Below, in pieces: positions 19,725 through 53,642 of a DNA stretch of 55,640 bases. The stretch spans positions 1-55,640 of IMG/VR virus record IMGVR_UViG_3300027847_002824. One strand, 5' to 3'. Within the stretch, counting starts at the first letter, position 1; each line of letters starts with the position of its first letter. Source of the DNA: a virus. Position numbers and translations under genes: made by a program. The notes beneath the pieces are model-generated. The model was given only the letters and a program-made list of their open reading frames with translations. It was not told the DNA's origin and did no database searches.

Positions 19725-20738
19725 ATGGATAGCCCTTTATTTAGTTGCCAATCTTACAGAAGATTTGGCGTAGAGATTGAAATAAATACATTAGATGGTT
19801 CGGCCCGTAGGCCGGATACTGAAAATGGAGAAATACCTTTAGGTGCTGATGTATTGGCACATATAGTGCATAAAGCCACCAAAGAGAAGGTTGAAATACA
19901 ATCTTGGGATTATATTCATAATAACGCTGATTGGGTGATTAAGCACGATACAAGCTGTGGTATGGAGATAAATTCCCCTGTTCTAAAGGGGTGGACAGGA
20001 TTAAAGAAATTAGTCCGAGTTGCAGAAATGATTGGAAAATCATCTTTAGAAGCGGATAGAAGATGTTCTTTACACGTTCATATTAACATTTCTGATTTGT
20101 CAAAAGCTCAATTGGCCTCAGTTATTGCTTATTACATCAAGTGTGAGCATGTGTTGTTTGATTCCTTCCCTGATCATAGAAAGAATAACCGATACTGCCA
20201 GTTCTTGGGGATGAGCGACATGTTTTCCCATGATTATCTCATAAATGCGGACGACATCATACACAAAGTGTCTAGTACAAAATATTTTTCCTTGAACGCT
20301 TATCACTTTATGCGTGGAGGAGGATTCACAGATGATAATTCAAGAAGACTTTCTGTGGAAATTAGGATGGCAGAAAACACAGGTTGCGTAGACCCTTGCT
20401 TTATGAAAAATTGGATAAGATTGTTGTTGCATTTTTTTGATGTGACAAAAAATTTACCGGCACCTTATGATTATACAGAGGGAGACCCATGGTCAGGTCT
20501 TTTGTGGCTTGATACACGTGATGTTATGGCGTTATTGGGATTTGATAATGAGAGTCATTTGTCAGAGGGTCTTAAACAAGTTCGTAGTTGGTTCATAAAC
20601 AGATTGAGGGAAAACACGCTTTGTGATTTGCCCGGAATTTGGTCCAAGGCAGGACGTTACAAAAATTGGACTGATATACCAGATACATCCGAGGTGAAAG
20701 ATGAAGACTATCTCTATGGAAAAAGATACGTTGTCTGA
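19725..20738 (+). CDS. Amidoligase (COOH-NH2 ligase) family enzyme
   Basis: 337 residues. The family pattern is clear: RRFGVEIEIN at the start, then DWVIKHDTSCGMEINSPVL, then RCSLHVHINIS and later RRLSVEIRMAENTG. Amidoligases are glutamine-synthetase-fold enzymes that use ATP to join carboxyl and amino groups, modifying peptides or proteins or forming small amides; the substrate is unknown. It is almost leaderless, since the promoter places the RNA start at the ATG. The next gene overlaps it by 38 bases and is a natural candidate for partner or substrate. Confidence 0.8.
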   Translation: MDSPLFSCQSYRRFGVEIEINTLDGSARRPDTENGEIPLGADVLAHIVHKATKEKVEIQSWDYIHNNADWVIKHDTSCGMEINSPVLKGWTGLKKLVRVAEMIGKSSLEADRRCSLHVHINISDLSKAQLASVIAYYIKCEHVLFDSFPDHRKNNRYCQFLGMSDMFSHDYLINADDIIHKVSSTKYFSLNAYHFMRGGGFTDDNSRRLSVEIRMAENTGCVDPCFMKNWIRLLLHFFDVTKNLPAPYDYTEGDPWSGLLWLDTRDVMALLGFDNESHLSEGLKQVRSWFINRLRENTLCDLPGIWSKAGRYKNWTDIPDTSEVKDEDYLYGKRYVV

Positions 20739-28985: not shown

Positions 28986-29972
28986 ATGAAGAACTTTCAC
29001 ATGGACATGATTCGGGTTACAGAGGCCGGTGCTATTTGTGCTGCTGAATGGGTTGGACGAGGCAATAAAGAAGAAGCCGATAAAGCGTCTACTGACGCTA
29101 TGAGAAACAGATTGAACAAGGTGGACTTTGCGGCAGAGATTGCTATTGGCGAAGGAATTAAGGATGAGTCTTATGGCTTGTTCGATGGCGAGAGGGTTGG
29201 AAAGAATGCTTATGGCATAATGGAGAACTGCCCTCCTTTGGAGTATTCTATTGCAGTCGATCCCATTGAAGGCACCACGCCAACAGTCAAGGGTGGTTAC
29301 GAAGCGATGTCTGTAATTTCCATGGGAAAAGTTGGATCACTCTATCAAACTGATTGTTTCTATATGGACAAGATTGCTGTTGGCCCAAAGGTGGCGGCAA
29401 GTTCACAGATCGATTTAAGAAATCCTGCCAGTGCAAATGTTGGAATGGTAGCAGCGGCCCTTGGAAAATCTCCTCAACATGTTTGTGTTTGCGTAATGGA
29501 TCGCCCTCGTACTCAGCCATTGGTCAAAGAGCTTCGTGAAATTGGATGTCGCATCAAGTTTATTTCTGATTGTGATGTAACAGCTTGTATTGCCGCCTGT
29601 GTGCCAGATAGTGGTATTGATATGTACTGGAGTATTGGCGGCGCACCTGAAGCTGTGATCGCTGCTTGTGCCATGAAGTGCATGGGCGGATTTTTGCAGT
29701 GTCAAGAAGTAGAGAAGAAAACATCGCCTGAAGATGCTACATTTGCCATTGATAGAATGAATCCAGTTGAAAGCTGGCTTCCAGCTAACGACAAGCTTCT
29801 TTCATTGGAAGACCTTGCTGCTGGCGAAGTGATGTTTGCGGGAACTGGAATCACAGACGGGAAACTATTGAAGGGTGTTCGGTTCACAGCACGTGGGCCA
29901 GTGACGAATTCAATAGCGATGAGATCAGGAAGTCAAACTGTTAGAAGGATGTTTACAGAACATGGGAATTAA
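28986..29972 (+). CDS. glpX: Class II fructose-1,6-bisphosphatase (GlpX type)
   Basis: 328 residues, full length. Hallmarks are EEADKASTDAMRNRLN, AIGEGIKDE, AVDPIEGTTPT, NVGMVAAALGKSP, SDCDVTACIAACVPDSGIDM and IGGAPEAVIAACAMKCMGG, all collinear with GlpX. It removes the 1-phosphate from fructose-1,6-bisphosphate; some bacterial class II enzymes also act on sedoheptulose-1,7-bisphosphate. This is a rare gene in phages and would act as an auxiliary metabolic gene. With HldE (40024) in the same window, feeding sedoheptulose-7-phosphate to heptose synthesis is possible, but inferred. Confidence 0.92.
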   Translation: MKNFHMDMIRVTEAGAICAAEWVGRGNKEEADKASTDAMRNRLNKVDFAAEIAIGEGIKDESYGLFDGERVGKNAYGIMENCPPLEYSIAVDPIEGTTPTVKGGYEAMSVISMGKVGSLYQTDCFYMDKIAVGPKVAASSQIDLRNPASANVGMVAAALGKSPQHVCVCVMDRPRTQPLVKELREIGCRIKFISDCDVTACIAACVPDSGIDMYWSIGGAPEAVIAACAMKCMGGFLQCQEVEKKTSPEDATFAIDRMNPVESWLPANDKLLSLEDLAAGEVMFAGTGITDGKLLKGVRFTARGPVTNSIAMRSGSQTVRRMFTEHGN

Positions 29973-39839: not shown

Positions 39840-40076
39840 ATGGCAAGAAAGTCAAAAAGAAAAATTATTGCTCAAGAAGTAGAACAAAAAGAATTCGTAG
39901 ACCCAACAACGGTTGTGGCTATCGGATGGTTTTCTTTCAAAGCAATTGCTCAGTCGATTATTGGTTGGGTAGGTCTTAAGTGTTTCCTTAAATGGAAAGA
40001 TAAATGGTCGAATAGAGGAAAGATTGAAGAAAAAACTACAGAGCTTTCTACAGAAGAATCGGCAGCGTCGTCTTGA
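39840..40076 (+). CDS. Small membrane protein
   Basis: 78 residues from ATG 39840 with GGAGGTGTTTACC upstream. Basic start (ARKSKRKI), one hydrophobic segment (about 27-50, VVAIGWFSFKAIAQSIIGWV), and an acidic Ser/Thr tail. It overlaps hldE by 53 bases. Function unknown. Confidence 0.65.
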   Translation: MARKSKRKIIAQEVEQKEFVDPTTVVAIGWFSFKAIAQSIIGWVGLKCFLKWKDKWSNRGKIEEKTTELSTEESAASS

Positions 40077-41406
40077 CATACATGTTCTGGGCGATGCGAT
40101 GGTTGATGAATATTACGAAGTCAAGGTAAATCGCATCAGTCCAGAATTTCCGATGCCGATCATGTTATCTTCTGAAGACAAGCCAATTAAACGTCCCGGT
40201 GGTGCTGCCAATGTAGCCTACCAATTTAAGCATTTTAACGCATCTGTGTCTCTTTTTTGTTTTCCAGATGAGAAGGCAGAGAAGGTTTTCAAGGAACACA
40301 AAGTAGATCGTTGGGGCTCTTTAGTTGATGTAAGAACGACTCTTCCAGTAAAGAGGAGATTTCTTGATGACGGAATTCAAATTACACGTCATGACATAGA
40401 GTCTCCTTTATGTGGTGTTAGCGAAGACATAATAGATTTCTATACAGAATCTTTATGCCAAGAAATTTCCAAGAGAAAAATGAATCCCGATGTTGTGATC
40501 TTGTCGGATTACAATAAGGGATTTTTTCATGGAGATGAAGGAAGCATTTTGGGTCAGTATCACAATTCGATAACTATTGTTGATCCCAAAAAAGGTCCAC
40601 TTCGTAAATGGCGTGGCTGTAGTATTTTTAAGCCAAATGCAAAAGAGGCATTTGATTTAAGTGGAAAAACAAAATGGAAAGAACAAGCTAAGTATTTTCA
40701 GAACGAACTTGAGTGTGAATCAGTTGTAATAACTGACGGTGGCAGAAAAGTGTCTGGCGTTCATAAAGATAAGTTCTTTTGTTTCACTCCTGACAAACAA
40801 GTAGAAGTAGAAAGTGTCATCGGGGCTGGTGATACTTTTTGTGTATTCTTGGCTATGGCTGTGGGACATGGATTTTCAGTACCAGAAGCATCTGAAATTG
40901 CATGGAACGCTGGTGCCGTATATGTCCAGAATAAAATGAATCGACCGATTGTGCCAGCGGAGATATCTGCTAACAACATTGTATGTCCAGAAGATTTGGC
41001 GAGTCGAGACTTTAAGCTTGTATTCACCAATGGATGCTTTGATTTATTACACGAAGGCCATCTTCAGACTCTCAGGTTTGCTCGTGAGAAGGGAGACAAG
41101 CTTGTAGTGGCTCTGAACTCGGATGAGAGCATCAAGCGTCTTAAAGGGGACGACAGGCCCATTAAACCTCTTGATCAAAGGATGGCAGTGGTAGCCGCTT
41201 TAGAGATGGTCGATTTTGTGGTGAGTTTTGAAGAAGATACACCACTTGAGGTTATTAAGAAGATCAAACCAGATGTTTTGGTTAAGGGTGACGGGTATTG
41301 CATAGATAATGTAGTCGGGGCAGATGTTGTGTCGGAAGTTTTTATCGCACCTTCCGTGGAAGGTCTTTCTACTACAGGATTTTTGAAATGCAATATAAGA
41401 AACTAG
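40024..41406 (+). CDS. hldE: Bifunctional heptose-7-phosphate kinase / heptose-1-phosphate adenylyltransferase
   Basis: 460 residues (E. coli 477), both domains intact. The N-terminal ribokinase-fold domain has HVLGDAMVDEYYEV, RPGGAANVA and the GAGDTF signature (about 267-272). The C-terminal nucleotidyltransferase has TNGCFDLLHEGH (HxGH at about 343) and VLVKGDGY. It phosphorylates D-glycero-D-manno-heptose-7-phosphate at C1 and then adds AMP, giving ADP-heptose for LPS core or protein heptosylation. The start is TTG 40024, with AGAGG 5 bases upstream. Very rare in phages; no isomerase or GmhB phosphatase is visible here, so the host would have to supply them. Confidence 0.94.
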   Translation: MKKKLQSFLQKNRQRRLDIHVLGDAMVDEYYEVKVNRISPEFPMPIMLSSEDKPIKRPGGAANVAYQFKHFNASVSLFCFPDEKAEKVFKEHKVDRWGSLVDVRTTLPVKRRFLDDGIQITRHDIESPLCGVSEDIIDFYTESLCQEISKRKMNPDVVILSDYNKGFFHGDEGSILGQYHNSITIVDPKKGPLRKWRGCSIFKPNAKEAFDLSGKTKWKEQAKYFQNELECESVVITDGGRKVSGVHKDKFFCFTPDKQVEVESVIGAGDTFCVFLAMAVGHGFSVPEASEIAWNAGAVYVQNKMNRPIVPAEISANNIVCPEDLASRDFKLVFTNGCFDLLHEGHLQTLRFAREKGDKLVVALNSDESIKRLKGDDRPIKPLDQRMAVVAALEMVDFVVSFEEDTPLEVIKKIKPDVLVKGDGYCIDNVVGADVVSEVFIAPSVEGLSTTGFLKCNIRN

Positions 41407-43230: not shown

Positions 43231-43259
43231 TTGTAATGTTTTTCCCTTGGCTGTATACT
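43231..43259 (+). promoter_or_regulatory. Sigma70-like promoter of the prkA group
   Basis: TTGTAA (43231-43236), 17-base spacer, TATACT (43254-43259), then 37 bases to the prkA ATG. Confidence 0.72.
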
Positions 43260-43296
43260 CCGTGCATATTCAGTCAACTTACAAGGGGATTTGTAA

Positions 43297-45396
43297 ATGG
43301 AAAACATTAAAGAAACAACGCCGAGCAGTAACGCTCTTAAACAATATGCTTCGATGTACAATCGTGACGAGTTCCTCACGTTGAATGAGGAGATGAGTTT
43401 TGGTGAGTACATTGAACTTTTGAAGAAGAAGCCAAAGTTGGCACGTAATGCTTTTCAATACGTGTACGACACAATCATGTCCAAAGGGACAGAAACTTTC
43501 ACAAGGCATCGTCGTAAGCACACGAGATACAATTTCTTCAGTGATTCCGATTATCCAATTTTTGGACTTGAAGAAACTTTGATGGACCTTGTTGATTTTA
43601 TTCATGGTGCTGCTGGGCATTATGGAACAGAGAAGAGAGTTCTTCTTTTACACGGACCTGTTGGTTCGTCTAAATCCACAATTTGTCGTGTATTGAAAAA
43701 GGGTCTTGAAGCATACAGTCGAACTGACGAAGGTGCTTGGTACACTTACAAGTGGGTTGATCTTCCCTTTGAAGGACCAGACGGTATTTATAACACTGAT
43801 AAGTGTGATGCCGCTATGCACGACAGTCCTCTTCGTTTGCTCCCAAGAGAGATGCGAGACGAAGTGCTTAAAGACATCAACACTATCCATGTGGATCAAG
43901 CCCCTGATGGAGAAAAGCATTCCGTCTACGAATTGATTTGCGAAGGTGAGCCCAACCCTCGTTGCAAGTTGTTCATGAAAGAGCTTCTTGAAAAGTACGA
44001 TGGTGATTGGCTTAAGGTTGTTGAGAATCATATTCGTGTTGTGCGTCAGTGTCACTCTGAATCGGATCGTATTGGAATTGGAACATTCCAGCCGAAGGAC
44101 GAGAAGAACCAAGATAGCACCGAGCTTACCGGAGATATGAACTTCGCTAAGATTGGCCACTTTGGTTCTGACTCCGATCCAAGAGCTTTCAACTTCGATG
44201 GAGAGTTTGAAGTTGGAAATCGTGGAGTGGTTGAGTTCATCGAAATGTTGAAGCTCGACAATGCTTTCCTTTATGATCTTCTTGGTGTTTCTCAAGAACA
44301 CCAGATCAAGCCTAAGAAGTTCGCTCAGATTGTTGTGGATGAGCTTATCATTGCTCACACCAACAACCCTGAGTACGAAAAGCTGAAGGCCAATCAGTTC
44401 ATGGAAGCTCTACGAGACCGTACTGTTAAAGTAGATGTTCCTTATCTGCTTCGCTGGTCGGATGAGCTTAAAGTTCTGGAACAGGATTATGGTACAGATA
44501 AAGTTAAGCAGCACATCATGCCTCATACTCTTGAGATTGCGGCATTCTTCGACATCTTGACACGTCTTGAAGATGACGGTGATGGAAAGCTTGATTTGCG
44601 TGACAAAGCTAAGCTTTATGATGGTCGAGCCATCCCCGGTTGGACTGAAGATACCGTTAAAGAGCTTCGTGATAAGTTCACCGAAGAAGGGATGTCATCT
44701 GGAGTTTCGGCTCGTTACACGCAAGATAAGATTTCAAACTGTCTTGCACGACACAAGGATTACATCAATGTTTTCCATGTGATGAGCGAAATCAAGAAGG
44801 GTTTGAGCATTTCCTCTCTAATTACTAATGTAGAGGATCGTAAGCGATACGAATATTGTGCTGAACTCGCCATTAAGGAACTGGATGAAATCTTGAAGAA
44901 CGAAGTCCAAAGAGCATTGGTTGCAGACGAAAAAGCAATCGAGAGACTTTGCAACAAATACATTGACAATGTGATTGCTTATGTCAATGCAGAAAAGATG
45001 ATCCATCCAATCACAGAAGAGTTGATGGACCCTGACGAGCGATTGATGAGAAGCATCGAAGAGAAGAATGGCATCCCAGAACAGGGTTGCGATGACTTCC
45101 GACGATCTCTTGCGGCCTTTATTGGAACTCTCGTTCACAGAGGCAAGAAGTTTGCATGGGACTCTAACGAAGAGCTTAAACGAGCTTTAGAGGCCAAGGT
45201 CTTTGAAGATGTCAAGGATACAGTCAAGCTGGCTTCTCTTACCAAAGAAGCAGCCGATCTTGATCCTGAGCTTCAAGAGAAGATCGACGCAATCAAAACT
45301 CGTCTGATTAAGCAGTACGGTTATAACCAACAGTCTGCTACAGATGTGCTCGATTATGTTTCTTCCATCTTCGCTCGTGGCGATACCTCCGAGTAG
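43297..45396 (+). CDS. prkA: PrkA-type AAA+ serine protein kinase / protease-like protein
   Basis: 699 residues, full length (E. coli YeaG 644). The front has MSFGEYIELLKKKPKLARNAFQ, as in the family. Walker A is HGPVGSSKST (119-128). Then come LPFEGPDGIY, DSPLRLLPREMRDEVL, GEPNPRCKLFMKELLEKY, and the PrkA C-terminal domain (VDVPYLLRWSDELKVLE onward). In bacteria PrkA acts with YhbH/YeaH and SpoVR/YcgB in starvation and sporulation responses; both kinase and protease activities have been reported. The other two partners are encoded just downstream. Confidence 0.94.
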   Translation: MENIKETTPSSNALKQYASMYNRDEFLTLNEEMSFGEYIELLKKKPKLARNAFQYVYDTIMSKGTETFTRHRRKHTRYNFFSDSDYPIFGLEETLMDLVDFIHGAAGHYGTEKRVLLLHGPVGSSKSTICRVLKKGLEAYSRTDEGAWYTYKWVDLPFEGPDGIYNTDKCDAAMHDSPLRLLPREMRDEVLKDINTIHVDQAPDGEKHSVYELICEGEPNPRCKLFMKELLEKYDGDWLKVVENHIRVVRQCHSESDRIGIGTFQPKDEKNQDSTELTGDMNFAKIGHFGSDSDPRAFNFDGEFEVGNRGVVEFIEMLKLDNAFLYDLLGVSQEHQIKPKKFAQIVVDELIIAHTNNPEYEKLKANQFMEALRDRTVKVDVPYLLRWSDELKVLEQDYGTDKVKQHIMPHTLEIAAFFDILTRLEDDGDGKLDLRDKAKLYDGRAIPGWTEDTVKELRDKFTEEGMSSGVSARYTQDKISNCLARHKDYINVFHVMSEIKKGLSISSLITNVEDRKRYEYCAELAIKELDEILKNEVQRALVADEKAIERLCNKYIDNVIAYVNAEKMIHPITEELMDPDERLMRSIEEKNGIPEQGCDDFRRSLAAFIGTLVHRGKKFAWDSNEELKRALEAKVFEDVKDTVKLASLTKEAADLDPELQEKIDAIKTRLIKQYGYNQQSATDVLDYVSSIFARGDTSE

Positions 45397-45407
45397 GTGA
45401 CTGAGTG

Positions 45408-45452
45408 GCGGTGACGGTGGAAGCTCCATAGCTCTGCCGTTACCGCTTTTTT
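45408..45452 (+). terminator. Terminator between prkA and yhbH
   Basis: GCGGTGACGG/CCGTTACCGC (one G-U pair) with a 19-base loop and six T's. It would reduce readthrough from prkA into the downstream genes, setting their ratio. Confidence 0.82.
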
Positions 45453-45478
45453 CTTAAAAGGCTTACAAGGAAAAGATC

Positions 45479-46741
45479 ATGCCGAAGCGAATTCAAGAAG
45501 ACCACAAAAAATTCCGGGATGTAATTTCCGGTAGAACAAGACGTGAGCTAAAACGTCTCATCAGCAATGGTGGGCTTGTTCGTCGTCGTCCAAAGGGCGG
45601 CAAGATGACGATTAGCATTCCTCAAATCGATATTCCTCACTTTGTCTTTGGAGACAATGGAGAGGGAGTTGGAAGAGGGCCGGGCAAAGAAGGTGACGTT
45701 GTTGGTCGTGATCCACAACCGGGTCAAGGCGAAGGCGGTGCCGGTGAAGACCCCGGTGAAGGCATCAACATTACGATAGACATGGATGATGTTTATCGTT
45801 TGATGGAGGAAGATTTAGAGCTTCCTCGAATGAGGCCCAAACCTAATGAAACTTTTGAAAGTGTCAGAATCAGATATAATGACATTTCTAAAGTTGGCTT
45901 AAACTCTTTGCGTCATCCTCGACGCACGATGATGGAAGCAATGAAGCGTCTGGCTATGACTGGGCAACTGGATGATCTTCATTATGCGAATAATTCAAAA
46001 ATTCCAATGAAGATCATTACTCCAATCAATAGTGATTTTAGGTATCGTCAGTTTAAGGAAATAAAGATACCTTCTTCGAATGCTGTCATCTTCTTCGCAA
46101 GAGACTGTTCTGGCTCTATGGATGATTACAGATGCGACATCGTTAGCGATATGTCGTGGTGGATTGATTGCTGGATCAGAAGGTTCTACAAGAGAGTTGA
46201 GAGATGCTACTTCGTTCATGATACTCGTGCTCAAGAGGTCAACGAAGAAGAATTCTACAGCTATCGATATGGCGGCGGAACAATGTGTTCTTCTGCGTTT
46301 CGATCAATTGCTGATCAGCTTGAGAACAGATTCCCGCCATCTAACTTTAATGTCTACATCTTTTACTTCTCTGATGGAGACAACTGGGGTGGAGATAATC
46401 AGAAGATGGTTGAAATCATCAAAGAAGAGCTTGGTCCAGACAGGATCAACATGATTGGCATTTCTCAGATTTGCTCTTGGAGATATCAAGATAGCGTTAA
46501 GGCGTATATTGATGAATCTCTTAAGAACGGAAAACTCAATAAAGACTATTTGAGAACTGCGGGGATTGGACAAGACGAAGAAGACAACGATAGTGACACT
46601 AACTCTTTCGGAGGCAATTGGGGATATTCTCCAGATTTGTCAGAAGAGGATAGAAACTCTCAAATCATTGGTGCCATTAAAAGATTGTTAGCGGCAGATC
46701 AATCAGTTGGAGCATCCCTTGATTATGTGGGAGGAGACTGA
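45479..46741 (+). CDS. YhbH/YeaH-family (DUF444) vWA protein
   Basis: 420 residues. The start, RIQEDHKKFRDVISGRTRREL, and the Gly-rich acidic linker (GEGVGRGPGKEGDVVG) are typical of DUF444. The C-terminal half is a von Willebrand A domain with MIDAS DCSGS (209-213) and later FYFSDGDNWGG. This is the partner of PrkA in bacteria, perhaps as substrate or adaptor. It is 82 bases after prkA behind a terminator, and overlaps the next gene by one base (TGATG). Confidence 0.92.
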   Translation: MPKRIQEDHKKFRDVISGRTRRELKRLISNGGLVRRRPKGGKMTISIPQIDIPHFVFGDNGEGVGRGPGKEGDVVGRDPQPGQGEGGAGEDPGEGINITIDMDDVYRLMEEDLELPRMRPKPNETFESVRIRYNDISKVGLNSLRHPRRTMMEAMKRLAMTGQLDDLHYANNSKIPMKIITPINSDFRYRQFKEIKIPSSNAVIFFARDCSGSMDDYRCDIVSDMSWWIDCWIRRFYKRVERCYFVHDTRAQEVNEEEFYSYRYGGGTMCSSAFRSIADQLENRFPPSNFNVYIFYFSDGDNWGGDNQKMVEIIKEELGPDRINMIGISQICSWRYQDSVKAYIDESLKNGKLNKDYLRTAGIGQDEEDNDSDTNSFGGNWGYSPDLSEEDRNSQIIGAIKRLLAADQSVGASLDYVGGD

Positions 46742-47790
46742 TGGATCAAACCCAAGGGTTTGTCGATCAATCTTTAGCTACTTGTTACAATTACATTCAC
46801 ACAGGAAGATGTAACAAGGCAATACAGATGTTATCTGTAATTAGAAAAATCGATTCAAACAATCCCATGATTTTGAGATTGCTTGATTTGATTCATGCGC
46901 CTTGTCGTAGCGAAGAAGAGCCGACTCAAGTTATAGACTTTTTTGGGCAGTATTGGGAAGGTCAGTCCCTTGATGGAAAATCCATAGAGATTTTTTGCGA
47001 TCAAGGGATGGGCGACACAATCAATATGCTTCGCTATTTGGATGTGATGAAAGAGGCGTGGGATTGCAAAATTGTCTTAAACAATTATGCCTACTATAAC
47101 GACTTCAAAGAGCTTCTGGAACAAATCCCAGCTATCCATAAATTTACGAACGAACACATCAAGTGTGATTACAACACAAATATATTAAGTATTCCGGCGT
47201 TGCTGAATGGACTTAAACATGCTGTTTACTATCCCGTACATTTTCTGAACTTGCTCGACCAGTCGGATATTCCAACACAGTCGGAGTTAGTACCCATGAA
47301 GGAGGTGAACCACACTTTGGGGAAACCGAGCGTGGGAATATCGTGGAAGAGCAATTCAGAGAATGTTTTATCACAGAAGAAATCTGTTCCAGATGATCAA
47401 CATGAAGATTTTTTAGATTGGTGTGACGACTCTGGGGTTTATTTATATGGAATCCATCCTGATGCTATGTGGCATCCGCTTAAAAACTTATCAGATACAG
47501 CGAGTGCGATAGCTGAAATGGATGTGATAGTGTCTGTAGACACTGTGGTTCTTCACTTGGCTGGAGCAATGGGCAAACCAACTTTTGGATTGTTGCCATT
47601 TGAAGCTGATCCTAGATGGAGCAAGTGTGGCAACAGTGAAGTGATATATGATTTTGGAGAAACCAAGAAATATGAAACTTCTCTCTGGTATCCTTCTGTA
47701 AGAATGTTTAGACAAGAAAAAGAAGGAGATTGGAGTCATCCACTCAATAGGATCAAAGAAGAGCTTGCATCTTTATGTGAGATGAAGTAA
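46741..47790 (+). CDS. TPR and GT9-like glycosyltransferase protein
   Basis: 349 residues. A short TPR-like N-terminus (CYNYIHTGRCNKAIQMLSVI) leads to a GT-B fold: FCDQGMGDTINMLRYL, PSVGISWKSNSEN, then TASAIAEMDVIVSVDTVVLH and LAGAMGKPTFGLLP, ending in WYPSVRMFRQ. This is the pattern of GT9 (heptosyltransferase-type) enzymes attached to TPRs. Donor unknown; ADP-heptose is an attractive candidate because HldE is encoded in the same window. Its place inside the prkA/yhbH/spoVR group is not the usual bacterial order. GGAGGAG precedes the ATG. Confidence 0.78.
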   Translation: MDQTQGFVDQSLATCYNYIHTGRCNKAIQMLSVIRKIDSNNPMILRLLDLIHAPCRSEEEPTQVIDFFGQYWEGQSLDGKSIEIFCDQGMGDTINMLRYLDVMKEAWDCKIVLNNYAYYNDFKELLEQIPAIHKFTNEHIKCDYNTNILSIPALLNGLKHAVYYPVHFLNLLDQSDIPTQSELVPMKEVNHTLGKPSVGISWKSNSENVLSQKKSVPDDQHEDFLDWCDDSGVYLYGIHPDAMWHPLKNLSDTASAIAEMDVIVSVDTVVLHLAGAMGKPTFGLLPFEADPRWSKCGNSEVIYDFGETKKYETSLWYPSVRMFRQEKEGDWSHPLNRIKEELASLCEMK

Positions 47791-47830
47791 CATAAAGATT
47801 CAAGAGTGAGTATATTTAAGGAATTTTAGG

Positions 47831-49432
47831 ATGACTAAATCAAGAATGATGAGCGGCTCTCCCTTGTTGGAGGGTGACAATACAATTCCGGGTCTGAAGA
47901 TCCACAAAGAAGTAAATGATCTCATTCCTCGCATTCATGAAGAGTGTAAGAAGATGGGGTTGGATTACTATCCAACTATTGTCGAGTTTGTCAGATATGA
48001 TGAGATGTCTGAGATCGCTAGTTATGGTGGATTCCCAGTGAGATATCCTCATTGGAAGTGGGGTATGGAATACGAACAAATGGCTCAGGGATACGAGCAC
48101 AATCAGTATCGTATTAGTGAAATGGTCATCAATACCAATCCATGTTACATCTACTGTATGGACTCCAATACGCTTGTCGATAACGTGGATGTAATTTGCC
48201 ATGCTATCGGGCACAATGATTTCTTTAAGAACAATGTGTTCTTTGAGCCAACTGACAATAACATGATGAATAAGTTGGCTAATCATAGCACTCGTATTAG
48301 AAACTACATTGCTCGATGGGGCAGTGAAGTGGTGACTGAATTTATTGATCAATGCTTGAGGGTTGAAACTCTTATTGATTCTCGTATTGCATGGAGAAAA
48401 AAGGAGATTGTGAATGTGAATTTGAAAGACGATAGAGAATATCGTTTTCCTAATCGTCTTACGTCAACTCATGGATACATGGATGAGTGGGTTAACCAAA
48501 AAGATTTCATTGACGAACAACATGAAGAAATTGAGAAAAAGGAAGCTGCTGATTTCTTAGATATTTATGGAAAGCCTACTCGTAATATCATGGGGTACTT
48601 AAAAGATAAAGCTCCAATGAAACCGTGGCAACAAGATATCATTACCATGCTCTATGAAGAGAGTATGTATTTTGCACCACAAAGACAAACTAAGATGATC
48701 AATGAAGGCTGGGCTAGTTTTGTAGACTATCATCTCCTTTGCAGAGAGGGATTAGCATCTCTTGGCCAAGAGAATGAAGCAGACGGTATTTGGCATTACG
48801 CTGAACACAAGATGCGAGTTCTTGGCGGCAAGTACAGCATGAACCCATACAAGCTTGGATACGAAATTCTTTTGGACATCGAAGATCGATGGAACAAAGG
48901 AAAGTTTGGAAGAGAATGGGAAGAGTGCAAGGACATGCAAGAAAAAGAAAACTGGGATAAGAAACTCGGTCTTGGTATGGACAAAGTATTTGACGTTCGT
49001 AAGCACTACAATGATTACACGTTGATTAGTGAGTTTTTCACAAGAGAACTTTGTGAGAAGAAAGAGTTCTTTGAATACAGAAAATTCCCTAATGGGGAAT
49101 GGAAGATAATCAACAGAGATTTTGACTCAATCAAAGCTAACTTGCTTAAGAAGTATCTTAACGGTGGATTGCCTGATATCAGATTAGCTGATCCTAATCA
49201 TCTGGGAAAAGGTTGGTTCTTCTTGCAACATTATGCAGATGGTAGACCGTTGTATGACAAGTACGTCAGGGAAGTTCTTCCATCTATTTACAGGCTATGG
49301 AGAAACGTAGTAGTTATAGCCACGAAGAACATGGATGACGTGGAGTTTGTCTATATTTGTGATGGACCAAATCCAGAGAAAGACATTCACGTAATGGAGC
49401 GAGATGATTACGAAAAGGAATTTATCAAATGA
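47831..49432 (+). CDS. SpoVR/YcgB-family protein
   Basis: 533 residues, full length. Typical segments are IHEECKKMGLDYYPTIVEFV, YGGFPVRYPHWKWGMEYEQM, NPCYIYCMDSN, VICHAIGHNDFFKNN and GWASFVDYHLL (all shared by SpoVR/YcgB). The histidines in CHAIGHNDFF and the Glu of INEGWASF suggest a metal-site-like arrangement. In Bacillus SpoVR is needed for spore cortex; in E. coli YcgB is linked to PrkA/YeaG. This completes the three-protein module in one phage locus. Confidence 0.94.
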   Translation: MTKSRMMSGSPLLEGDNTIPGLKIHKEVNDLIPRIHEECKKMGLDYYPTIVEFVRYDEMSEIASYGGFPVRYPHWKWGMEYEQMAQGYEHNQYRISEMVINTNPCYIYCMDSNTLVDNVDVICHAIGHNDFFKNNVFFEPTDNNMMNKLANHSTRIRNYIARWGSEVVTEFIDQCLRVETLIDSRIAWRKKEIVNVNLKDDREYRFPNRLTSTHGYMDEWVNQKDFIDEQHEEIEKKEAADFLDIYGKPTRNIMGYLKDKAPMKPWQQDIITMLYEESMYFAPQRQTKMINEGWASFVDYHLLCREGLASLGQENEADGIWHYAEHKMRVLGGKYSMNPYKLGYEILLDIEDRWNKGKFGREWEECKDMQEKENWDKKLGLGMDKVFDVRKHYNDYTLISEFFTRELCEKKEFFEYRKFPNGEWKIINRDFDSIKANLLKKYLNGGLPDIRLADPNHLGKGWFFLQHYADGRPLYDKYVREVLPSIYRLWRNVVVIATKNMDDVEFVYICDGPNPEKDIHVMERDDYEKEFIK

Positions 49433-50333: not shown

Positions 50334-51005
50334 ATGGCAAGACAGAGCAAAGATCAAGTTCTTTATGATGCTCACACTCATGCTGTAAATCTTAATTTAC
50401 GTGACATATATCTTCACAGCTATTATGTTAAAGACGATGAATCCGAGCCGGGCGTGGAGTATAGACAAGCTACCACGTTCATAAAGAATTTGCATATAAT
50501 GGATCAAGGGGTTGATCCAAAGCCTATTTTGGTACACCTTCATTCTGATGGTGGTTGCTGGAACAACGGAATGGCTATTTTCAATTCTGTACAATTTTCC
50601 CGATCCTACATTACGATGTTGTGTTACTCACAAGCGTCTTCAATGAGCGGAATAATCCTTCAGTCCCCTCAGTTAAGAATCATGATGCCAGATTGTCATT
50701 TTATGATGCACCATGGATCAGGAGGATATGAAGGACATCCATTTGCTGTAAAGACGGCGGCAGATTTTGACATCATGGCCTGCAAACGGATGTTGACTAT
50801 TTTTGCAGAACGGGCTATAAAAGGTCCGTACTTTGCTAAAAGAAAGTCAACAACGGTTGAGTCTGTGTACAGATTCTTCGATAAGAAGATTAAGGACAAG
50901 ATAGATTGGTTTCTGGATGCTGAAGAAGCAGTCTTTTATGGACTTGCAGATGCAGTTTTAGGATCGAAAGATTATCCAGATGTTCAATCGTTAAGAGAGG
51001 AATGA
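50334..51005 (+). CDS. ClpP/crotonase-fold serine protease-like protein
   Basis: 223 residues. The core ILVHLHSDGGCWNNGMAIFN, then SQASSMSGIILQS with the likely nucleophile Ser103, then RIMMPDCHFMMHHGSG with the likely catalytic His126, follows ClpP. Asp/Glu candidates follow in FLDAEEAVFYGLADAVL. ClpP-like enzymes serve as ATP-dependent proteases or, in many phages, as head maturation proteases. The leader-bearing small proteins here could be its substrates, but that is inference. GGAGG precedes ATG 50334. Confidence 0.8.
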   Translation: MARQSKDQVLYDAHTHAVNLNLRDIYLHSYYVKDDESEPGVEYRQATTFIKNLHIMDQGVDPKPILVHLHSDGGCWNNGMAIFNSVQFSRSYITMLCYSQASSMSGIILQSPQLRIMMPDCHFMMHHGSGGYEGHPFAVKTAADFDIMACKRMLTIFAERAIKGPYFAKRKSTTVESVYRFFDKKIKDKIDWFLDAEEAVFYGLADAVLGSKDYPDVQSLREE

Positions 51006-52253: not shown

Positions 52254-53642
52254 ATGCACCACCCCATTACCGGATTTGAGCATATTCACAGACACTCTGA
52301 CTTCTCGCTCATGGATGGCTTTGCCAAGGTCCATGAGTATGCCGAGAGACAGAAGGAAATCAATCAGAAGTTTCTGTGCATTACAGATCATGGTGTGATG
52401 GGTGCGGTGCCACAGCAAGTGAAGGAGTGCGAGAAGCATAACCTTTTCCCGATGTTTGGCTGTGAGCTTTATGTTAACTCGATGCAACCAAAAGTTGAGA
52501 ATCGATACCAATCAGCAGAATTCAGAAAAAGTCTTGGCAACGGGGTTGATAAAAAGTCCCCCGAGCAAGCCAAGTTTGATAAATCATCTCATCTTCTTGC
52601 AGTTGCTTATACGAACGAAGGATATAAAAACCTTGTTCGCTTAACCTCTTGGTCTTGGATTCACGGATACTACCGTAAGCCCAGAGTCAACCATGATGTC
52701 CTCATGCAATACAAAGAGGGCATTATCTTTACCAGCACATGTGGCAACAGCGAGATTGCCAACGCTCTCTTTAATGAAGGAGAAGATGCAGCGTTCCAAA
52801 TGTTGGAAAAGTACATCGCTATGTTTTCGCCGAACTTCTATCTTGAGTTGATGATGCTCGATTGGAAGATGCAGAAACCATACGATATATTTCTCATTAA
52901 AGCTCACGAAAAGTATGGCCTGCCAATCATCATGACACAGGATTGTCACTACTGCAAGAAAGAGCACAGCCACAATCAACGGCTGCAACTCATGCAGCAG
53001 AATCGGCGTACCATTCAAGAGATCAATGCCTTGATCGAGTCTGGTGAGGCTGACGATTTGTTTGAACTTCAAGATGAAAATCTTTGGCTTAAGTCAGAAG
53101 ATGAACTTAATGCTAAATGGGAGCTTGATTACAAGGATGTTATTGATTACGAACTTTTCAAACAATCTAAATCAAATACTGTGGCTTTGTGTGAAAGAGC
53201 CAAAGGTGTTGAAATTGATCGAACCATCAAGCTTCCTAAAGTTCCAGATGCCGATGTGGTGCTTATGGAAGAGATTAAAAAAGGTTTCGTTGCTCGCCAT
53301 TGTCCACGAACTCCAGTGTACTCTAAGAGAATTCAAGAAGAGTATGAGTTGATTTGTGAGAAGGGTTTCGCTTCTTACTTCATTGTTCAGAAGATGATGA
53401 CAGACGAAGCACGATCAGAAGGGCCTAAGATCATTGGTTTTGGAGATGGTTCTGAAGCTGTCGGGCCGGGTCGAGGTAGCCAGTGTGGATCGCTGATTGC
53501 TTATTGTCTTCGGCTTCATGATGTCGAACCGATCATTCATGACTTAAGATTTTCTCGATTTTTGTCACCGGCTCGTGGTGGTAAGCAGCAGAAGATCAGA
53601 CATTCAATTGAACCTATTGCACATGAGGAGGTGCCATTATGA
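52254..53642 (+). CDS. DnaE-like PHP-domain protein truncated before the polymerase active site
   Basis: 462 residues. The PHP domain of bacterial DNA polymerase III alpha is intact: HIHRHSDFSLMDG, FLCITDHGVMGAV, MFGCELYVNS, TQDCHY. After a helical part it reaches the start of the polymerase palm (GFASYFIVQKM; VGPGRGSQCGSLIAYCLRL; LRFSRFLSPAR) and then ends in an unrelated tail of about 20 residues. In DnaE the catalytic Asp triad comes directly after this point and is absent. It may be a remnant, a split polymerase whose other part lies elsewhere, or a PHP nuclease that has been kept on its own. Confidence 0.82.
   Translation: MHHPITGFEHIHRHSDFSLMDGFAKVHEYAERQKEINQKFLCITDHGVMGAVPQQVKECEKHNLFPMFGCELYVNSMQPKVENRYQSAEFRKSLGNGVDKKSPEQAKFDKSSHLLAVAYTNEGYKNLVRLTSWSWIHGYYRKPRVNHDVLMQYKEGIIFTSTCGNSEIANALFNEGEDAAFQMLEKYIAMFSPNFYLELMMLDWKMQKPYDIFLIKAHEKYGLPIIMTQDCHYCKKEHSHNQRLQLMQQNRRTIQEINALIESGEADDLFELQDENLWLKSEDELNAKWELDYKDVIDYELFKQSKSNTVALCERAKGVEIDRTIKLPKVPDADVVLMEEIKKGFVARHCPRTPVYSKRIQEEYELICEKGFASYFIVQKMMTDEARSEGPKIIGFGDGSEAVGPGRGSQCGSLIAYCLRLHDVEPIIHDLRFSRFLSPARGGKQQKIRHSIEPIAHEEVPL

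What the first reader, a model, noticed from the sequence alone, without database searches (positions are those of the whole stretch)
43231..49432. Complete PrkA-YhbH-SpoVR stress module in a phage genome
Three proteins that act together in bacterial starvation and sporulation (PrkA/YeaG AAA+ kinase-protease, DUF444 vWA protein, SpoVR/YcgB) are all full length with active-site motifs kept, behind a phage-region promoter. The terminator after prkA and a GT9-like glycosyltransferase inserted between yhbH and spoVR differ from the usual bacterial order. The phage may be imposing or mimicking a stationary-phase state in its host, or using an AAA+/vWA pair as a remodelling machine.
Basis: partly seen in the sequence, partly recalled or inferred. 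Interest (0 to 1): 0.9.

Follow-up and report, generated by a model that had tools for sequence, protein, structure and literature searches.

The report
PrkA-YhbH-SpoVR cassette in huge phages
A fragment of a giant bacterial virus carries an intact three-gene machine that bacteria use in starvation and sporulation, and this machine turns out to be a conserved part of that virus lineage, evolving about as slowly as its DNA polymerase, and to have been captured by large phages at least three separate times.

Summary
Window 43297-49432 encodes full-length PrkA, YhbH (DUF444) and SpoVR with key motifs intact; a GT9-like gene lies between yhbH and spoVR, and a strong terminator hairpin follows prkA. 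The upstream promoter is no better than chance.

It is not contamination. The cassette recurs at one position, HldE ... PrkA-YhbH-SpoVR-(ClpP-like)-DnaE, in most sampled fragments of a huge-phage lineage (one record 595 kb). Starting independently from DnaE, 56 of 63 loci have SpoVR within 10 kb upstream. Phage PrkA, YhbH and SpoVR each form one fully supported clade apart from bacteria, are under purifying selection and evolve about as slowly as DnaE. The order PrkA-YhbH-SpoVR is the normal bacterial order; only the GT9 insertion is special, seen only in the window's closest relatives. Phages acquired the cassette at least three times (this lineage, 635-642-kb Maha-type phages, Thermus phages).

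SpoVR hosts inteins at two sites, each within 4 residues of an invariant glutamate, which marks a probable HxxxH/Glu active site. No solved fold matches SpoVR.

Best mechanism, partly inferred: PrkA (AAA+ motor) and YhbH (MIDAS adaptor) work on or with SpoVR as one machine, a core infection function. The stationary-phase idea is untested. Phage copies were already known in Thermus phages.

The parts
43297..45396 (+). prkA: AAA+ ATPase of the PrkA family, long type (699 aa)
   Evidence: PF08298 + PF06798; 58-65% identical to other huge-phage copies aligned, up to 79% to the nearest; phmmer E = 3e-207 to solved structure 9xip
45407..45453 (+). intrinsic-terminator-like hairpin plus T-tract between prkA and yhbH
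   Evidence: RNA fold -31.2 kcal/mol, z -3.83, none of 200 shuffles as stable; sequence read
45479..46741 (+). yhbH (DUF444, YeaH/YhbH): von Willebrand A protein with MIDAS metal site
   Evidence: PF04285 213 bits; MIDAS residues invariant
46741..47790 (+). GT9-like (heptosyltransferase-like) gene inserted between yhbH and spoVR
   Evidence: weak PF01075 24.7 bits, heptsyl_trn_I far below cut-off; present at this spot only in the nearest relatives L003, L004, L006-L009, L090
47831..49432 (+). spoVR (SpoVR/YcgB family), without intein in the window
   Evidence: PF04293 342 bits + PF24755; invariant H124xxxH128, E97, E292
50334..51005 (+). ClpP-like serine peptidase downstream of spoVR; neighbour, membership in the machine not shown
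   Evidence: PF00574 76.7 bits; detected upstream of DnaE-N in 27 of 63 loci
40024..41406 (+). HldE-like heptose-7-P kinase / heptose-1-P adenylyltransferase, conserved upstream neighbour
   Evidence: PF01467 + PfkB; best NCBIfam HldE 285 bits, below cut-off 521; present upstream of PrkA in most loci
52254..53642 (+). N-terminal half of a split DNA polymerase III alpha (DnaE-N), conserved downstream neighbour
   Evidence: PHP + start of DNA_pol3_alpha; C half lies about 9 kb further in the sister contig L087

Best explanation
The region is a genuine huge-phage locus with a vertically inherited PrkA-YhbH-SpoVR cassette, most simply acquired once by this phage lineage from bacteria with the long form of PrkA and kept as a core gene set. 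Proposed working: PrkA assembles into an ATP-driven ring; YhbH, through its MIDAS metal site, is the adaptor that docks the ring on its partner; SpoVR, made in step with YhbH from adjoining or overlapping genes, is the effector, probably an enzyme with a metal site built from H124, H128, E292 and perhaps E97. The phage supplies the whole machine rather than a regulator of the host copy, most plausibly to keep the envelope and physiology of a slow or starved host workable through a long infection. Shown: intact genes, clade, synteny, selection, gene coupling, repeated capture. Inferred: ring, docking, enzyme, and physiological target.
For: Domains and motifs intact. Same order and position in most of 80 PrkA loci and, searched independently from DnaE-N, SpoVR in 56, YhbH in 52 and PrkA in 50 of 63 loci within 10 kb upstream; SpoVR in 19 of 20 contigs checked, 65-527 kb long. 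One phage clade for PrkA (100/100), SpoVR (100/100) and YhbH (100/100). Mean protein distance PrkA 0.45, YhbH 0.59, SpoVR 0.59 against DnaE-N 0.62 and HldE 1.03; distance matrices of the three correlate 0.82-0.90. dN about 0.09-0.15 against dS about 0.8-1.4 in close pairs. YhbH-SpoVR gap at most 30 bp in 63 of 80 huge-phage, 42 of 53 bacterial and 11 of 13 Maha-type loci. Three separate phage clades; joining the huge-phage and Maha-type clades rejected, AU p = 3e-8. Inteins, which favour conserved functional motifs (general knowledge), sit at EMVIN^ (after N101) and NEGWA^ (after A295), beside invariant E97 and E292. [quoted passage not shown]
Against: No SpoVR relative in the PDB by sequence or by fold, with a model of pLDDT 89, so the enzyme claim rests on invariant residues and intein sites alone. 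Position 125 of the HxxxH motif is A or V, not the catalytic Glu of HExxH proteases. No expression, complex or phenotype data exist. PrkA and YhbH are separated by a terminator in the window and by a median of 299 bp in the clade, so PrkA may not always be co-transcribed. Synteny alone would also make the distance matrices correlate: DnaE-N correlates 0.77-0.88 with the three.
Confidence: 0.55

Rival explanations
1. [quoted passage not shown] coli).
For: E. coli yeaG/yeaH mutants fail to adapt to sustained nitrogen starvation, with lower rpoS in the yeaG mutant (PMC4664914); B. anthracis PrkA mutants have pleiotropic sporulation defects (PMC13001217); a marine study proposed viral control of host physiological state, with spoVR the most abundant viral sporulation gene (PMC8940887).
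Against: The phage carries the whole effector cassette including SpoVR, conserved as slowly as DNA polymerase, more like a machine it needs than a signal to one host's regulon; the nearest bacterial kin (Myxococcota, Planctomycetota, Chloroflexota, Bdellovibrionota) are not endospore formers (general knowledge).
Confidence: 0.18
2. Virion assembly or packaging aid: the AAA+/vWA pair remodels head or packaging proteins.
For: In Thermus phage Lalka8 the cassette lies between portal/minor head genes and TerL; in phiYS40 it is about 1 kb from the terminase.
Against: In huge phages TerL is roughly 150-230 kb away (G005, G006, LR756511) and the cassette sits among replication and nucleotide genes (window: DnaB-like helicase, UvsX-like, gp32-like, thymidylate synthase, DHFR).
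Confidence: 0.1
3. Phage-encoded proteolysis: PrkA feeds the adjacent ClpP-like peptidase, and SpoVR and YhbH select substrates.
For: ClpP-like gene next to SpoVR in the window and in part of the clade.
Against: ClpP-like detected in only 27 of 63 loci; it scores below the Clp cut-offs and also matches head-maturation proteases; not noted beside the other two phage cassettes.
Confidence: 0.05
4. Counter-defence: the cassette neutralises a host anti-phage function.
For: Repeated capture by unrelated large phages.
Against: No PADLOC defence model matches any of the proteins; the cassette is a stress operon in bacteria.
Confidence: 0.07
5. Bacterial contamination or chimeric contig.
For: The nearest bacterial operons have the same gene order.
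Against: A second contig carries the same genes and flanks at 100% protein identity (L003/L087); phage copies form a separate clade; 130 viral stretches encode relatives, often beside phage replication genes.
Confidence: 0.01

Closest known systems
Bacterial PrkA-YhbH-SpoVR operon (long PrkA type; Myxococcota, Planctomycetota, Chloroflexota, Bdellovibrionota; same families as E. coli yeaG-yeaH plus ycgB)
   Same: All three families, the same order, the same YhbH-SpoVR coupling, the same motifs
   Different: Phage proteins form their own clade; 49-55% PrkA identity to the nearest bacteria; a GT9-like gene is inserted in the window's closest relatives; phage replication context
Thermus phage cassettes (phiYS40, TMA, MN1, Lalka8)
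   Same: vWA, SpoVR and PrkA-like genes close together in a phage
   Different: Order vWA-SpoVR-PrkA; about 30% PrkA and about 22% SpoVR identity; an independent clade; next to head/terminase genes in Lalka8 and phiYS40
Maha-type huge-phage cassettes (LR745206, LR756502 and viral contigs L245-L262)
   Same: PrkA-YhbH-SpoVR in a phage, usually contiguous; in LR756502 SpoVR lies about 240 kb from PrkA
   Different: YeaG-type PrkA, 64% identical to E. coli YeaG; separate capture
LR756511, uncultured 595-kb phage
   Same: Same lineage, order and flanks
   Different: No GT9 insertion; DnaE in one piece
AAA+/MIDAS-vWA machines of the MoxR kind (RavA-ViaA, CbbQ-CbbO, Mg chelatase); recalled from general knowledge
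   Same: ATPase ring plus MIDAS adaptor logic
   Different: PrkA is a different AAA+ family with its own C-terminal domain; SpoVR has no counterpart there; no homology test run

Membership tests
PrkA (PF08298/PF06798) | both Pfam domains over cut-off, full length | tested here: met
   253.6 and 239 bits, residues 33-426 and 436-687
PrkA (PF08298/PF06798) | AAA+ nucleotide-binding residues | tested here: met
   G120 P121 G123 K126 S127 and N308, E313, E316, N356, R375 invariant among phage, Thermus-phage and enterobacterial PrkA
PrkA (PF08298/PF06798) | kinase or protease activity | not testable with these tools
   activity contested in the literature (PMC13001217)
E. coli YeaG equivalog (NF011999) | score over curated cut-off | tested here: not met
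   191.9 bits against 576
YeaH/YhbH (DUF444, PF04285) | family score and MIDAS DxSxS...T...D | tested here: met
   213 bits; D209 S211 S213 T268 D299 invariant
spore_yhbH equivalog (TIGR02877) | score over curated cut-off | tested here: not met
   216 bits against 467.95; not a sporulation-specific orthologue
SpoVR (PF04293) | family and C-terminal domain scores | tested here: met
   342 and 28.8 bits
PrkA-YhbH-SpoVR operon | three genes adjacent, one strand, in that order | tested here: met
   order kept; GT9-like gene inserted between the last two
HExxH zinc metallopeptidase (considered for SpoVR) | catalytic Glu after the first His; zincin fold | tested here: not met
   position 125 is A/V in 92 of 97; no fold match at E <= 0.001; HxxxH and downstream Glu are invariant
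GT9 heptosyltransferase (window 46741-47790) | family score over cut-off over the whole domain | tested here: inconclusive
   24.7 bits against 22 over 37 residues only; TIGR02193 29 against 185
Intein in relatives' SpoVR | splicing domain, homing endonuclease, exact insertion that leaves an intact host protein when absent | tested here: met
   Intein_splicing and LAGLIDADG_3; near-identical alleles with and without exact insertions. Splicing itself not tested
Recent auxiliary metabolic gene capture | phage copies nested among host copies, patchy distribution | tested here: not met
   single deep phage clade, conserved synteny

The most novel reading that the evidence does not exclude
SpoVR is an unrecognised metal-dependent enzyme worked by an AAA+/MIDAS motor, and large phages have at least three times captured the complete machine because a long infection in slow or starved hosts depends on it; phage deletion mutants would then be a first direct assay for a system whose bacterial role is unresolved.
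Probability: 0.25. Interest if true: 0.8.

Novelty: new member of a known kind. Interest (0 to 1): 0.62.

Why it matters
PrkA, YhbH and SpoVR are widespread bacterial stress proteins whose biochemistry is disputed or unknown. A phage lineage that treats them as core genes, and independent capture by at least two other phage groups, says the set works as a unit and does something useful during infection. The phages also give hundreds of diverged sequences, and inteins that point to SpoVR's likely active site, a concrete handle for biochemistry. It moves 'sporulation genes in viruses' from a list of auxiliary genes to conserved machinery in some of the largest known phages.

Tried and rejected
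Contamination: rejected. Phage-region promoter: no better than shuffled sequence. Defence role: no PADLOC hit. SpoVR as an ordinary HExxH metallopeptidase: catalytic Glu absent and no fold match; the weak top Foldseek hits (E about 0.5 and up, TM about 0.1) are not evidence. First SpoVR model (40 sequences, pLDDT 80) was replaced by one from 97 sequences (pLDDT 89) with the same negative result. DnaE-N single-sequence scan found only 5 loci, so it was repeated with an alignment. Enterobacter phage LAU1 yeaG/yeaH: 98% identical to E. coli YeaG and at the record's end, so probably host flank, not a phage cassette. Cassette next to terminase as a general rule: true in two Thermus phages, false in huge phages. 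Literature on inteins in SpoVR: none found in the held library. The 2022 paper on PrkA as a protease and the phiYS40 genome paper are not held. Rfam and tRNA scans of the window: nothing.
Full report
WHAT IS THERE. The window is a 55,640-base virus record. On the + strand it has prkA 43297-45396, yhbH/DUF444 45479-46741, a GT9-like gene 46741-47790 and spoVR 47831-49432, each supported by Pfam. The surroundings are phage replication and nucleotide genes: family A DNA polymerase, DnaB-like helicase, gp32-like single-strand binding protein, UvsX-like recombinase, thymidylate synthase, DHFR, dNMP kinase. Base composition is even across the cassette.

MOTIFS. PrkA keeps GPVGSSKST (Walker A) and the residues expected around Walker B, sensor 1 and a candidate arginine finger; they are invariant even against Thermus-phage and enterobacterial PrkA (the naming of the last ones is inference). 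YhbH keeps all five MIDAS residues. SpoVR keeps H74, E97, N101, H124, H128, N135, N291 and E292 in 97 of 97 sequences including YeaG-type relatives at about 23% identity.

REGULATORY SIGNALS. The terminator after prkA is real (z -3.8). The promoter string is present but such strings are as common in shuffled sequence.

NOT A CONTAMINANT. A 67,970-base contig carries the same genes at 100% protein identity with the same flanks (L003/L087). A scan of IMG/VR with PrkA found 130 relatives, the best 80 at 59-100% identity. In most of these loci the order HldE ... PrkA, YhbH, SpoVR, ClpP-like, DnaE is kept where the contig is long enough, also in LR756511 (595,163 bases), where no ClpP-like match was seen.

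LINKAGE TESTED WITHOUT PrkA. DnaE-N was used as an independent bait. Of 63 loci with at least 9 kb upstream (not de-duplicated), 56 have SpoVR, 52 YhbH and 50 PrkA within 10 kb; in six of the 13 with something missing, SpoVR is there and only genes at the edge of the fetched stretch are lacking. Of the seven without any of the three nearby, two have PrkA elsewhere on the contig; five (24-104 kb fragments) do not. In 20 contigs of 65-527 kb, 19 have SpoVR. So the cassette is near-universal in the sample but not proven universal.

EVOLUTION. PrkA, SpoVR and YhbH phage sequences each form one clade at 100/100 against 36-43 bacterial sequences, mainly Myxococcota, Planctomycetota, Chloroflexota and Bdellovibrionota. 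The bacteria were chosen as the nearest hits, so the exact donor is unknown. In bacterial loci with all three genes, 53 of 54 have the order PrkA-YhbH-SpoVR on one strand: the phage order is the bacterial one. A combined PrkA tree gives three phage clades: this lineage, Maha-type phages (LR745206, LR756502; 64% identical to E. coli YeaG) and Thermus phages. Forcing the first two together costs 586 log-likelihood units (AU p = 3e-8). The Thermus branch is long and its exact place is unsure.

CONSTRAINT. Across 29 loci the mean protein distance is 0.45 for PrkA, 0.59 for YhbH, 0.59 for SpoVR, 0.62 for DnaE-N and 1.03 for HldE. dN/dS is about 0.1 in close pairs (for example L056/L066: PrkA 0.085/0.78, YhbH 0.086/1.0, SpoVR 0.11/1.3; synonymous sites are near saturation in several pairs). 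YhbH and SpoVR adjoin or overlap (gap at most 30 bp) in 63 of 80 huge-phage loci, as in bacteria; PrkA is looser.

INTEINS IN SpoVR. About 19 of 88 distinct phage SpoVR ORFs (a motif count that includes partial ORFs) carry one or two inserts of about 340-440 aa. They match Intein_splicing and LAGLIDADG_3. Site 1 follows N101 in EMVIN, four residues after invariant E97; site 2 follows A295 in NEGWA, three residues after invariant E292. L047 and L049 are identical in prkA and differ by intein 1; L054, 97% identical in prkA, has both sites empty. Three bacterial SpoVR genes have an insert at site 2 as well (L092, L114, L157; L114 is cut by its contig end and was judged by the junction alone). No paper in the held library mentions inteins with SpoVR. 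The window's SpoVR is intein-free. Inteins tend to sit in the most conserved functional motifs (general knowledge), so these sites point to E97/E292, with H124/H128, as the active site (inference).

STRUCTURE. No SpoVR relative is in the PDB by sequence. A confident model (pLDDT 89.2) has no PDB fold match better than E = 0.45. It puts H124xxxH128 in helix 115-134 and E292 in helix 265-305, after short strands, which recalls zincin topology; but the catalytic Glu is replaced by A/V, and I could not measure distances. PrkA has a solved relative, 9xip (E = 3e-207). YhbH has none at a significant level.

MECHANISM. Inference, in order of certainty: (a) the three proteins act as a unit, from co-inheritance, coupling and repeated joint capture; (b) PrkA is an ATP-driven ring and YhbH its MIDAS adaptor, by analogy with AAA+/vWA machines (general knowledge); (c) SpoVR is the effector with a metal site; (d) the physiological target is the envelope or physiology of a starved host, from spore-cortex (SpoVR; reference title listed in PMC4605624) and nitrogen-starvation phenotypes (YeaG/YeaH; PMC4664914). 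Step (d) is weakest. Rivals are listed with what would refute them.

WHAT IS KNOWN. Annotated phage copies exist in Thermus phages, a Ralstonia jumbo phage lists SpoVR and PrkA (PMC8504454), viral spoVR was counted in marine samples (PMC8940887), and PHROGs holds families for all three, mostly as unknown function. New here, as far as the searched library shows: the lineage-wide syntenic cassette in huge phages, its slow evolution, separate captures of the full set, and SpoVR inteins.

LIMITS. Loci come from similarity-capped searches and are mostly fragments; hosts are unknown; no expression data; the tools may omit records very near the window.

Noticed in passing
window 52254-53642; L087 20389-21384; L174, L183, L202, L208: DNA polymerase III alpha is split into two genes in much of this phage lineage: a ~460-aa N part ending just before the catalytic PDxDxD motif and a ~830-910-aa C part with a new N-terminal extension, 3-9 kb downstream. 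No split intein was seen at the break; the gene is whole in L002 and L238.
   Followed up: partly
L061 16108-18732; L076 17445-20105: Inteins inserted at the GPGRG motif of DnaE-N in relatives (Pfam run on L061 only).
   Followed up: partly
L092 9299-11638, L114, L157 9212-11884: Bacterial SpoVR genes (Chloroflexota, Myxococcota, Deltaproteobacteria) carry inserts at the same NEGWA site as phage SpoVR; the Chloroflexota one shows no endonuclease match. Possible phage-bacterium intein exchange.
   Followed up: partly
window 40024-41406 and 46741-47790: An HldE-like heptose kinase/adenylyltransferase is conserved upstream across the lineage, and the window's closest relatives add a GT9 heptosyltransferase-like gene inside the cassette: possible ADP-heptose glycosylation by the phage.
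   Followed up: no
window 50334-51005: ClpP-like peptidase with Ser and His motifs kept, next to SpoVR in part of the lineage; could be a head-maturation protease or a Clp-like peptidase.
   Followed up: partly
L247 1909-3774, 5520-6533, 12734-13660: A Maha-type cassette lies next to a full HSP70 (DnaK), an amidase with peptidoglycan-binding domain and a UV endonuclease UvdE.
   Followed up: no
window 28986-29972; 19725-20738: GlpX-type fructose-1,6-bisphosphatase (339 bits) and a putative amidoligase in the same phage fragment.
   Followed up: no
L085 (MN688132.1 1-3308): Enterobacter phage LAU1 'YeaG/YeaH' is 98% identical to E. coli YeaG and begins at base 1 of the record: probably host flank in a phage record.
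   Followed up: partly
LC785692.1 104892-105248: Bacillus phage CM1 encodes a YhbH-like 'sporulation protein'; no PrkA or SpoVR match was found in that record.
   Followed up: no
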